From assembly GCA_027486835.1 (NCBI GenBank), contig JAIXOJ010000010.1, positions 1 to 64,000 on the forward strand: a stretch of 64,000 bases of DNA, read 5' to 3'. The translations under genes were made by a program, and so were the position numbers. Positions 1 through 47,838 of this stretch are shown piece by piece. Source of the stretch: Chitinophagaceae bacterium (GTDB lineage: Bacteria; Bacteroidota; Bacteroidia; Chitinophagales; Chitinophagaceae). The notes under the pieces are model-generated. The model made no database searches. It was not told where the DNA came from and saw only the letters and a program-made list of their open reading frames with translations. Position 1 is the stretch's first letter; each line of letters opens with the position of its first letter.

Positions 1-231
1 AGTGTTGACGGTCATTTAAGGAGTGATGACGGTCATTTAAGCAGTGTTGACGGTCATTTAAGGAGTGATGACGGTCATTTAAGCAGTGTTGACGGTCATT
101 TAAGGAGTGTTGACGGTCATTTAAGGAGTGTTGACGGTCTTTTAAGCAATGTTTACGGTCATTTAAGGAGTGTTGACGGTCATTTCCGAGGTGTTGACGG
201 TCTTTTCCGAGGTGTTGATGGTCTTTCCAGA
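1..231. repeat. 21-bp tandem repeat array A
   Basis: Eleven head-to-tail 21-bp units run from base 1, so the left end of the array is outside the window. Most units contain the short dyad TGAC-G-GTCA. The first eight units end in TTTAAGG or TTTAAGC and alternate partly between GTGTTGAC and GTGATGAC starts. The last three drift to TTTCCGA endings. Because 21 is a multiple of three, frame 1 stays open to the TAG at 274-276 (heptad SVDGHLR), but there is no start codon inside the window. I read the array as non-coding, though the end of an upstream gene cannot be excluded. Confidence 0.9.
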
Positions 232-11105: not shown

Positions 11106-11266
11106 CTGGTTTTGTTTTATTTGCTATAGCAATATTGATGTCAAATACGATTGGATTAAAACCGGATTGAGCATCTTGTAGATGGATTTGAATATGGTTT
11201 TTTCATTCAGTTTTTTATATTCGCATCCTAATCTATTCTTATTGCAAATTGCATATTGATTCTATT

Positions 11267-11992
11267 ATGGTATTTTCATTAGCACCCTTAGCTGTTACAA
11301 ACCTTGGTTATGAAGAATTGGCAGAATTACCAGTTCGTTTAAAGTATGATATTGATAATAATATCGACAAATCCAAAATGACTGATGTTACATTAACAGA
11401 TTATTTGTCTGATTTGTATGAAAAAGGTACAACTTTTAAAAATGGTTTGGGAAAAGGTGGTGCTAATGACTACACCCTTAAATTGTTTAATGCAGATAAG
11501 TTAAGGGACAGGGCAATTGCCATTTTTATGCAAGCCCTTAGACTTGCACATGAAGCTGATGATGAAGCAGAAGTGGATGCAGCGGAGAGCCTATTGAACA
11601 TGCTTAAACCTTTTGGTAATGTGCAACGTAAAAATTTTGAGGCAGAATCAGCAGCTATTGACGCAATTCTTGTTAACCTTAGTGAAGCAAAATATAAAGC
11701 ACATATCACTAAGTTGGGGTTGGCAAAATATGTAGCCAAGATTCAACAAACTAATGATGATTTCAAAGCCTTATTCACCACAAGGGTTGCTGACAAATTG
11801 AAGGAAACACCTTTGGATTTAAAGGCAGTAAGAAAGGAATTAATCATTATTTACAATGACACGGTAGAATATATTTTAGCTATGGCAAAAAGTAAAAAGC
11901 ACCCCAATGTGGAACTTTTCAAACAATTGCTAACCGTTGTAAACGCTGGTAGAAAATATTTTAATGATAATTACATTCGTAGAGGAAAATAA
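11267..11992 (+). CDS. DUF6261-like protein of unknown function
   Basis: A 241-aa, mostly helical protein without signal peptide or membrane segment, starting at the ATG at 11267 (MVFSLAPLAV); an upstream TTG at 11249 is less likely. The pattern DKLRDRAIAIFMQAL, KPFGNVQRKNFEAESAAIDAIL, LGLAKYVAKIQQTNDDFKALFTTR resembles the Bacteroidota-restricted DUF6261 family. This is my recognition by pattern and was not searched. It is an intracellular-looking outlier inside a run of secreted enzymes. The 41-bp repeat array at 12050 starts 58 bp after its stop codon. That juxtaposition is the only functional clue; a role in handling the array DNA would be speculation. Confidence 0.65.
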   Translation: MVFSLAPLAVTNLGYEELAELPVRLKYDIDNNIDKSKMTDVTLTDYLSDLYEKGTTFKNGLGKGGANDYTLKLFNADKLRDRAIAIFMQALRLAHEADDEAEVDAAESLLNMLKPFGNVQRKNFEAESAAIDAILVNLSEAKYKAHITKLGLAKYVAKIQQTNDDFKALFTTRVADKLKETPLDLKAVRKELIIIYNDTVEYILAMAKSKKHPNVELFKQLLTVVNAGRKYFNDNYIRRGK

Positions 11993-12049
11993 GTTTACTG
12001 ATACTGCAATGACCAACATAAAGGCCAGTCTCCGTAAAGCATTTTTGAG

Positions 12050-12295
12050 TTGTCCGAGCGTTGGACAGCCTGCTGCAAGGATGTTTTGAGTTGTCCGATT
12101 GTCGGACAGCCTGCTGCAAGGATGTTTTGAGTTGTCCGAGTGTCGGACAGCCTGCTCCAAGGATGTTTTGACTTGTCCGAGCGTCGGACAGCTTCCTGCA
12201 AGGATGTTTTGAATTGTCCGAGTGTCGGACAGCTTCCTGCAAGGATGTTTTGAATTGTCCGAGTGTCGGACAGCCTGCTGCAAGTATGTTTTGAG
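12050..12295. repeat. 41-bp tandem repeat array C with perfect dyads
   Basis: Six units start at 12050, 12091, 12132, 12173, 12214 and 12255, so the period is exactly 41 bp. Most units hold the dyad GTCCGA-GTG-TCGGAC (variants GCG, ATT and a T-for-C change in the first unit), separated by a spacer with GCCTGCTGCAAGGATG or GCTTCCTGCAAGGATG. A partial seventh start is seen at 12295. The array fills the space between the DUF6261-like gene and the GH2 gene. Because 41 is not a multiple of three, the long minus-strand frames across it are by-products of the repeat. Confidence 0.92.
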
Positions 12296-12355
12296 TTGGA
12301 TAAAGCGTTTATTTGCTTTGTTAACCTTGTATTTATTAGTGTGAAACTTAGTTTA

Positions 12356-46830: not shown

Positions 46831-46860
46831 TTGCAAAATCCTATAAACGTTTGGAATTAC

Positions 46861-46893
46861 AACTTCCCGAAAGTTTCAAACTTTCGGGAAGTT
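46861..46893. repeat. Perfect 16-bp-stem hairpin, copy 1
   Basis: The arms AACTTCCCGAAAGTTT and AAACTTTCGGGAAGTT pair perfectly around a single C. It stands 30 bp after the GH105 stop codon. The surrounding ~87 bp (from the TCCTATAAACGTT block through the hairpin to GAAAGAAAAAACCT) is repeated with few changes at 46926-47000. Confidence 0.85.
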
Positions 46894-46912
46894 TTCGAAA
46901 GAAAAAACCTAC

Positions 46913-47025
46913 ATAGGATTTGAAATCCTATAAACGTTGGGAATTACAACTTCCCGAAAGTTTCAAACTTTCAGGAAGTTTTGGAAAGAAAAAACCTTTA
47001 TGTGGTTTCAAACCCTATTAAGGTT
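46913..47025. repeat. Palindrome cluster, copies 2-4
   Basis: Three further inverted repeats follow: ATAGGATTT-G-AAATCCTAT (46913-46931), a second copy of the 16-bp hairpin with one change (46948-46980), and an imperfect one of the same 33-nt outline, AACCTTTATGTGGTTT-C-AAACCCTATTAAGGTT (46993-47025). They fill the space between two convergent genes, so they may act as a two-way terminator. Their repetition points to a dispersed REP-like element. Confidence 0.75.
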
Positions 47026-47033
47026 ACACCAGC

Positions 47034-47411
47034 TTAAACCCCACCCATTTTGCCTTGAACAATTTCTTTATAAATCTTCAATTCTGCTTCTAATGCTGCA
47101 ATGCGATTGTCTTTTTCTTCCATTTCCTTATCCACCAATGGATTGGGAATTGCAGGATGCGCTTTGCTAAAAGCCATGGCCAATTCTGCTAAAAAATTAT
47201 AATCGATGGCAGCACCAACCCTCCATAAAATGGCTGTTTGAACAGAAGGTTGTTTTACATAATCCTTTACTACTGAAGGGCTTACGTCTATTTGTCTAGC
47301 AACCTCGGCTTTCGATATTTTTATATGCTTAAATTGTTTTGCAATCATTGCACCGATATTAGGGCAACTATCTTTACTACTTACTAGGTATTTTCTATTA
47401 ACCGGCGACAT
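47034..47411 (-). CDS. Small helix-turn-helix protein with coiled-coil tail
   Basis: A 125-aa soluble protein and the only clear minus-strand gene. Residues about 18-75 (IGAMIAKQFKHIKISKAEVA, then RQIDVSPSVVKDYVKQPSVQ) look like an XRE-type helix-turn-helix, and ILWRVGAAIDYNFLAELAMA resembles the helix after it. Residues about 96-120 (EMEEKDNRIAALEAELKIYK) form a coiled coil, probably for dimerisation. The gene is convergent with GH105 and divergent from the beta-mannosidase gene. The 21-bp repeat array lies directly upstream of its putative promoter, which makes array binding or autoregulation a reasonable but unproven idea. Confidence 0.75.
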   Translation of the reverse strand: MSPVNRKYLVSSKDSCPNIGAMIAKQFKHIKISKAEVARQIDVSPSVVKDYVKQPSVQTAILWRVGAAIDYNFLAELAMAFSKAHPAIPNPLVDKEMEEKDNRIAALEAELKIYKEIVQGKMGGV

Positions 47412-47450
47412 CTTTAACGAATTTGATATTAATAATACATAAATTTAGTT

Positions 47451-47458
47451 CAAAGTTA
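47451..47458 (-). promoter_or_regulatory. Candidate -7 box for the minus-strand HTH gene
   Basis: On the minus strand this reads TAACTTTG, an exact TAnnTTTG match, about 40 bases before the ATG at 47411. The nearest TTG upstream is too close to be a canonical -33 element. The 21-bp array begins about 24 bp further upstream, at a position where bound protein would influence this promoter. Confidence 0.45.
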
Positions 47459-47481
47459 CAAGATTTAATCAATATATAGAC

Positions 47482-47838
47482 GTCTTAGAACGCTGTAGAG
47501 GCATCTTAAACACTAGCGTGGTGCTTAAATACGACGGTTTAGTAGGTTAAAATGTATTTATCGAAGTCTTAAACCCCTGTATCATTGTCTTATAATGCTA
47601 TGAAAGTAGCTAATACAGCTACGATTAGGTTTTAAACTACTGTGTCCACGTCTTAGATAACGCTGTCTTGGTTTTAGACGACTTCGTTAACGTCTTGAAC
47701 GACGACGTTCACGTCTCAGACGACGATGTTCACGTCTTGAACGTCTTCGTCCTAGTCTTAAACGTCTTCGTCCTAGTCTTAAACGACTCTGTCTACGTCT
47801 TGAACGACGATGTTCACGTCTTAGGCTACTTTCATTCG
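47482..47838. repeat. 21-bp tandem repeat array D
   Basis: About sixteen to seventeen units can be followed. Those from 47650 to 47817 (eight units) are in exact 21-bp register and well conserved, each opening with GTCTTRAA or a close variant. Those from 47482 to 47649 are decayed, with occasional 20- or 22-bp steps. In the conserved units a dyad is centred at the same place (between unit positions 12 and 13). Examples are GAACG-ACGA-CGTTC, TGAAC-GACGAT-GTTCA, ACGA-CT-TCGT and ACG-TCTT-CGT, so ACG-N4-CGT is the common core. The array lies between divergent genes (HTH protein and beta-mannosidase). Confidence 0.88.

What the first reader, a model, noticed from the sequence alone, without database searches (positions are those of the whole stretch)
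47034..47838. HTH/coiled-coil gene with a decaying 21-bp array directly upstream of its -7 box
Seen: a 125-aa helix-turn-helix protein, a TAACTTTG box 40 bp before its start, then the array. The array is sharp at the mannosidase side (47650-47817, exact 21-bp steps) and decayed towards the HTH gene (47482-47649). The dyad centre is constant while the arms differ between units. Inference: growth and homogenisation at one end, ageing at the other, as in arrays that expand by polar duplication.
Basis: partly seen in the sequence, partly recalled or inferred. Interest (0 to 1): 0.62.

Follow-up and report, generated by a model that had tools for sequence, protein, structure and literature searches.

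The report
DNA-binding gene with its own array
A small bacterial DNA-binding protein is encoded beside a row of evenly spaced binding-site-like repeats that seems to be its own; relatives across the Bacteroidia carry the same gene-plus-array cassette with different repeats, and what the cassette does for the cell is unknown.

Summary
Window 47034-47411(-) encodes a Cro/C1-type HTH plus coiled-coil protein; upstream lies a 344-bp, 21-bp-period array, sharp at 47650-47825, decayed at 47482-47649. Homologues (no Pfam or NCBIfam family) occur patchily in Bacteroidia. Of 64 distinct homologue loci, 56 have such an array within 500 bp upstream, against 2-12% of other genes. Each array has its own 16-17-bp dyad, median 10 sites, mostly spaced 21 or 22 bp. 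Proteins with similar recognition helices tend to have similar dyads (post hoc measure; a first raw test was weak). In 27 loci, and apparently in the window's own genome across a contig gap, an unnamed helical ~163-aa partner gene lies on the far side: partner-array-HTH. The cassette duplicates, and is present or absent between species, as a unit. Best explanation: a dedicated array-binding autoregulator in a chromosomal cassette, working like plasmid StbA/stbDR or ParR/parC but not a member of those. Binding is inferred, not shown.

The parts
47034..47411 (-). HTH (Cro/C1-type) plus C-terminal coiled-coil protein, 125 aa; recognition helix about residues 44-52, coiled coil 90-122
   Evidence: ORF; AlphaFold; PDB-profile and fold matches to Cro/C1 proteins and coiled coils, weak; no Pfam match above cutoff, no NCBIfam
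47650..47825 (.). sharp half of the 21-bp array (gene-distal), dyad CGTTtAAGaCTTaAACG
   Evidence: TRF; lag-21 identity 0.71; motif; palindrome p=0.03
47482..47649 (.). decayed, gene-proximal half of the same array, still in 21-bp register
   Evidence: lag-21 identity 0.45 vs 0.24-0.32 at other short lags; local score 9 within the shuffle range; units printed
47451..47458 (-). TAACTTTG, a -7-like box 39 bp before the HTH start; not conserved in the family
   Evidence: read; family test (3 of 33, expected 1.9)

Best explanation
The gene encodes a dimeric Cro/C1-type DNA-binding protein whose dedicated target is the array directly upstream of it. Dimers sit on dyads repeated every two helical turns (21-22 bp), all on one face of the DNA, and the coiled-coil tails hold neighbouring dimers together into a short nucleoprotein rod covering about ten sites. 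As the array fills the space up to near the gene's start (median 47 bp) and often follows a co-directional partner gene, the rod most likely controls the HTH gene's own expression and read-through from the partner. Gene, array and often a helical partner gene form a small chromosomal cassette that duplicates and is gained or lost as a unit; each copy has its own protein-array specificity, so several cassettes can live in one genome without cross-talk. Shown: association, dyads, phasing, array diversity, unit duplication, presence/absence. Supported but not proven: that the protein binds its own array. Inferred: dimer, rod, autoregulation, selection for orthogonality.
For: Arrays at 56 of 64 distinct homologue loci vs 8/151, 4/44, 2/117, 11/93 and 3/156 other genes. 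In the first set 23 of 23 hits above 60 bits have it upstream and none has a comparable one downstream; in genomes found later 10 of 12 hits above 75 bits outside G000; in named genomes 31 of 33, the two others being gene fragments. Dyads of 16-17 bp, different per locus; 29 of 65 arrays palindromic at p<=0.05. Spacing: 396 of 597 exactly 21, 116 exactly 22. Recognition-helix identity >=0.5 with rest of protein <0.65: 20 pairs, operator similarity 0.825 vs 0.736, 0 of 5000 permutations; e.g. G000:C210, G079:C11 and G004:C40 share a GCTAaTAGC-like core. Unit duplication: L014/L017 alike from the first repeat to about 20 bp after the stop, flanks unrelated. Partner-array-HTH in 27 distinct loci; in the window's own genome the array below the partner at the end of C150 and the array above the HTH at the end of C56 have the same 22-bp unit in the same orientation. 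Empty site in Aequorivita todarodis.
Against: No binding or expression data. A raw Mantel test of recognition helix vs operator was weak (r=0.089, 97 of 2000 permutations as high; partial -0.004, 1058 of 2000); the normalised measure was tried after it. In sliding windows the recognition helix (residues 40-56) gives 64 vs 54 in matched controls, but an N-terminal window (8-20, 13 pairs) gives the same. Eight of 64 loci fail: L202 and L210 just under threshold, G864 and G872, two fragments, two pseudogenes. The window genome is full of 21/41/42-bp arrays without an HTH gene (17 arrays of such periods in a 200-kb sample). The higher identity of the L199/L215 cassette than of its flanks may reflect recent exchange rather than selection.
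Confidence: 0.6

Rival explanations
1. The array is a chromosomal centromere-like or anchoring site: the HTH protein coats it to position or pair DNA, as StbA does on stbDRs of plasmid R388 or ParR on parC, and regulation of its own gene is secondary.
For: Long, evenly phased arrays (median 10 sites) are more than simple repression needs; R388 StbA works through two sets of five 9-bp repeats around its own promoter, and StbB is not required for stability (passages of PMC3098194).
Against: Patchy presence (49 of 294 genomes of the family have any hit at E<=1e-3, only part of them strong members), several copies per genome, no recurring motor gene seen among gene clusters shared by three or more of 20 neighbourhoods (not all genes were named), no homologues in the plasmid, phage and viral collections searched.
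Confidence: 0.17
2. Toxin-antitoxin-like pair: the helical partner is a toxin or effector, the HTH protein its antitoxin and array-binding autoregulator.
For: HTH fold closest to HigA, HipB and other Cro/C1 proteins (weak, E 0.012 and above); paired genes; mobile, multi-copy, diverse specificities.
Against: Partner found beside the HTH array in 27 of 73 distinct loci only, and not at the window locus; partner copies with arrays occur in genomes where the window protein found no HTH homologue, e.g. G005; partner has no solved or family match; the only PADLOC hits are to type I specificity subunits over the coiled coil.
Confidence: 0.1
3. One reading: a minisatellite without function that grows by polar duplication at one end and ages at the other, next to the gene by accident.
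For: Gradient in the window array (rho -0.68) and two identical adjacent units; arrays without HTH are common in this genome.
Against: 56 of 64 vs 2-12% association; no polarity in 64 arrays; no unit change in the L199/L215 pair; dyads and locked spacing.
Confidence: 0.06
4. The array acts as RNA: it is transcribed between partner and HTH gene and its inverted repeats fold into hairpins that control decay or translation.
For: In many loci the array fills the gap between two co-directional genes (2-177 bp from partner to array; median 47 bp from array to HTH), with no family-wide promoter box.
Against: Period locked near two DNA helical turns; AT-rich (G+C 0.29), so hairpins would be weak; no Rfam match in the window. 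RNA folding of the arrays was not tested.
Confidence: 0.07

Closest known systems
StbA / stbDR of plasmid R388 (PMC3098194, passages read)
   Same: small DNA-binding protein with a cognate array of about ten direct repeats around its own operon's promoter; stability function without a required ATPase
   Different: 9-bp repeats spaced by 2 bp in two sets of five, on a plasmid; here dyads at 21-22 bp on chromosomal contigs, many copies with different sequences; sequence relation to StbA not tested
ParR / parC (type II plasmid partition), recalled
   Same: small DNA-binding dimer on an array of about ten sites upstream of its own operon, helical phasing
   Different: ParR is a ribbon-helix-helix protein with an actin-like ParM; here a Cro/C1 HTH with coiled coil and no motor gene seen nearby
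sopC / SopB of the F plasmid, recalled
   Same: tandem repeats each with an inverted repeat, spaced in about whole numbers of helical turns
   Different: 43-bp units, ParB-type protein with SopA ATPase
Cro/C1-type antitoxins and regulators (HigA, HipB, ClgR, C proteins)
   Same: fold of the DNA-binding domain; autoregulation typical of the class (recalled)
   Different: few operators (recalled) rather than an array of about ten; no long C-terminal coiled coil of this kind
REP/BIME-type extragenic repeats, recalled
   Same: intergenic, palindromic, many per genome
   Different: here each array has its own sequence; the period, not the sequence, is shared

Membership tests
Cro/C1-type (XRE) HTH proteins | Cro/C1 HTH fold of five helices | tested here: met
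   AlphaFold helices 18-29, 33-39, 44-52, 58-68, 72-83; top fold matches are Cro/C1 proteins, though E >= 0.012; PDB profile hits MBF1, HipB, CylR2
Cro/C1-type (XRE) HTH proteins | curated family score (Pfam HTH_3, HTH_26) | tested here: not met
   14.8 and 13.9 bits against cutoffs 23 and 22
StbA/stbDR plasmid stabilisation | carried on plasmids | tested here: not met
   L199 HTH protein: no tblastn match in 72,556 plasmid records; several loci lie on contigs of 0.4 to 1.7 Mb
StbA/stbDR plasmid stabilisation | sequence relation to StbA | not tested
   StbA was not compared
ParR/parC partition | actin-like ATPase gene in the operon | tested here: inconclusive
   no such family stood out among the clusters shared by 20 neighbourhoods and ten neighbours scanned with Pfam; not every neighbour was named
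ParR/parC partition | ribbon-helix-helix DNA-binding protein | tested here: not met
   all-helical HTH model, no strand
Type II toxin-antitoxin | toxin gene adjacent | tested here: not met
   partner adjacent in 27 of 73 distinct loci, separated by the array, absent at the window locus
Type II toxin-antitoxin | toxic partner neutralised by the HTH protein | not testable with these tools
   needs an expression test
Polar minisatellite | unit change concentrated at one end | tested here: not met
   64 arrays, mean rho 0.013; L199/L215 units unchanged in number and order; the window array alone shows a gradient
Known anti-phage defence proteins | PADLOC model match | tested here: not met
   no hit for the window protein; only coiled-coil-region similarity to type I specificity subunits for the L206 HTH protein
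Phage or viral genes | homologues in phage or viral collections | tested here: not met
   L199 protein vs 50,697 phage records none; A4 vs viral contigs none; short HTH match of the window protein to phrog_7676, E 1.5e-5 over 26 residues

The most novel reading that the evidence does not exclude
Bacteroidia chromosomes carry an undescribed kind of selfish or housekeeping cassette: a helical partner protein, a phased array of about ten dyads, and a dedicated HTH/coiled-coil protein. Its protein-DNA specificity diversifies freely, giving a natural library of orthogonal protein-array pairs, and the genome-wide 21/41/42-bp arrays without an HTH gene are its other or degraded members, using further partner families such as DUF6261.
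Probability: 0.38. Interest if true: 0.87.

Novelty: new variant of a known kind. Interest (0 to 1): 0.72.

Why it matters
If right, dozens of natural, mutually different HTH-array pairs exist with one architecture, which makes the recognition code of Cro/C1 proteins and the assembly of phased nucleoprotein rods directly testable. It also gives a first handle on why some Bacteroidia genomes hold an array of about 21-bp period every 10-15 kb (8.5 per 100 kb in the window genome's sample; 0.5 and 0 in two genomes without a strong family hit). The protein and partner families have no Pfam or NCBIfam name, and the listings of eight full-text searches showed no paper describing them; subscription papers and preprints are not covered.

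Tried and rejected
Polar growth: tested on 64 arrays and one orthologous pair and rejected as a general account. -7 box as part of the module: rejected. Window protein acting on other arrays of its genome: the window array finds no second good match in the genome (best other E 0.55), and six HTH arrays of G000 scored against 31 fetched G000 sequences do not match each other's or orphan arrays except the sister pair C55/C39 (a visual likeness of L107:3789-4138 proved chance-level, 19 vs 105 bits). Raw Mantel test: weak, see evidence against. Empty site for the window locus: the GH2 neighbour's matches in the other genomes of the genus are only 40-42% identical, so none could be judged. Fold match of the partner: none. 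Rfam: none in the window. Plasmid, phage and viral homologues: none. Hit dropped by rounding: G442:C192 (60.5 bits) has no array (score 11) and is outside the 64. Six of the 70 entries are loci reached twice; all six pass, hence 56 of 64. Lower-scoring generic HTH hits mostly have no array. The motif finder imposes symmetry and a minimum spacing of 17, so its outputs alone prove neither; hence.

Full report
What is there. The ORF 47034-47411(-) encodes 125 aa. AlphaFold on 31 homologues gives a compact HTH domain and one long C-terminal helix (mean pLDDT 89.2). Profile and fold searches of the PDB find Cro/C1-type proteins and coiled coils, weakly. No Pfam model passes its cutoff and NCBIfam has none. 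Upstream, 47482-47825 is one 21-bp-period array: score 71 against at most 13 in 300 shuffles; the half far from the gene is sharp and the near half decayed but in register. The TAACTTTG box lies at 47451-47458 on the minus strand.

The gene-array pair is a family trait. The window's genome (G000, 6.4 Mb, 219 contigs) has six places, the window's included, that match most of the window protein. A profile search of 294 genomes of its family found 49 with any hit at E<=1e-3; a group of strong hits separates from generic HTH proteins. Of 51 loci scanned, all 23 above 60 bits have a period-21/22 (or 41-44) array upstream and none a comparable one downstream; of the 28 weaker hits most have none. 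Searches of 396 genomes of the order and 395 of the phylum gave 12 new hits above 75 bits outside G000; 10 have the array, G872 and G864 do not reach the threshold. A scan of named genomes gave 33 loci (Limnovirga soli, Taibaiella lutea, Aequorivita, Flavobacterium and others); 31 have the array and two in Aequorivita antarctica are gene fragments. With one fixed rule (score >=18 in 500 bp upstream), 62 of 70 entries pass, that is 56 of 64 distinct loci, against 8 of 151, 4 of 44, 2 of 117, 11 of 93 and 3 of 156 other genes in five background sets. A second HTH subfamily (six first members, alignment A3) also has arrays.

Anatomy of the arrays. A palindromic motif search gave a 16-17-bp dyad in 44 of 45 loci and in 31 of 33 named loci. 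The search imposes symmetry, so a separate permutation test was run: 29 of 65 arrays are palindromic at p<=0.05 and 15 at p<=0.01; the window array has p=0.03. Of 597 spacings between picked sites (minimum spacing 17 imposed), 396 are 21, 116 are 22 and 531 are 20-22. Median site number is 10 and the array ends a median of 47 bp before the gene or matched start. The dyads differ from locus to locus; the six G000 arrays tested do not match one another except for the sister pair.

Does the protein read its array? Pairs of loci whose recognition helices are at least half identical while the rest of the protein is under 65% identical (20 pairs of 2278) have more similar operators than all pairs (0.825 vs 0.736; 0 of 5000 permutations). 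Against this stand a weak raw Mantel test tried first and a sliding-window control in which the recognition helix is best only jointly with an N-terminal window. I take this as support, not proof.

A third part. In 27 distinct loci of 73 (29 of 79 entries) a ~163-aa protein of no known family or fold, modelled as all-helical, lies just across the array, nearly always in the same direction. The second HTH subfamily has another ~313-aa neighbour in four loci (G182, G000:C18, G000:C97, G399; alike by eye). Searching the ~163-aa family in 59 relatives gave hits in 9 genomes; of 24 loci scanned (of 27 rows), 17 have an array of such period downstream, 4 upstream and 3 neither, with or without an HTH gene. 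In G000 the partner on C150 and the HTH on C56 both run into contig ends inside an array of the same 22-bp unit, as expected if the assembly broke inside one cassette.

Mobility and turnover. In G032 two loci are alike from the first repeat to about 20 bp after the HTH stop and unrelated outside. Between a csbD-like and a clpB-like gene (names recalled from their sequence), four of eight genomes compared carry partner-array-HTH, one (Aequorivita todarodis) has only about 100 bp there, and three have other genes. In the pair L199/L215 partner (97.4%), array (95.2%, no gap) and HTH (97%) are more alike than the flanks (83.1 and 87.5%), which means either constraint or recent exchange of the cassette; units kept number and order. 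Homologues were not found in the plasmid, phage or viral collections.

Genome context. The window genome holds 17 arrays of helical-multiple period in a 200-kb sample (8.5 per 100 kb), Taibaiella lutea (G207) 4 in 200 kb, and two genomes without a strong family hit 1 and 0 in 200 kb each (four genomes only, stretches chosen from large contigs). Most arrays have no HTH gene, so the cassette is the best defined part of a wider repeat system.

Interpretation. The association, phasing and array diversity point to a dedicated array-binding protein. Because the array occupies the interval up to the gene's start and often follows a co-directional partner, the most likely action is control of its own expression by a phased nucleoprotein rod. 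It works like StbA on stbDRs (passages of PMC3098194 read) or ParR on parC (recalled), but fails defining tests of both.

Noticed in passing
11249-11992(+) and 12043-12298: A DUF6261 gene (PF19775, E 1.6e-32) is followed 51 bp later by a 41-bp-period array (two units of 20.5) whose unit is palindromic (p=0.01); it looks like a sibling module without an HTH gene.
   Followed up: partly
1-238 and 437-674: Two more 21-bp arrays with unrelated units at the contig start, no HTH gene in sight; the second has an AGTATT...AATACT dyad (p=0.09).
   Followed up: partly
46836-47025: Two 87-bp direct repeats with a perfect 16-bp inverted repeat (AACTTCCCGAAAGTTT) just downstream of the HTH gene.
   Followed up: no
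L063, L064, L040, L131: A second HTH/coiled-coil subfamily (A3) with its own ~313-aa neighbour and 21-bp arrays.
   Followed up: partly
L227 and L228: In Aequorivita antarctica an N-terminal and a C-terminal HTH-gene fragment lie on different contigs without arrays: broken copies.
   Followed up: no
L190, L192, L193, L007, L070: Decayed or truncated HTH copies in the window's genome (stops inside, or coil only), suggesting birth and death of cassettes.
   Followed up: no
L199:5281-5324 and L215:5278-5324: The last ~14 residues of the coiled coil differ sharply (53.5% DNA identity) between otherwise 97% identical genes, as if the C-terminal end had been exchanged.
   Followed up: no
L102:16638-17339, L106:9637-10314, L112:2407-3153: Further unnamed proteins of 225-248 aa next to 21- or 63-bp-period arrays without HTH genes.
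   Followed up: no
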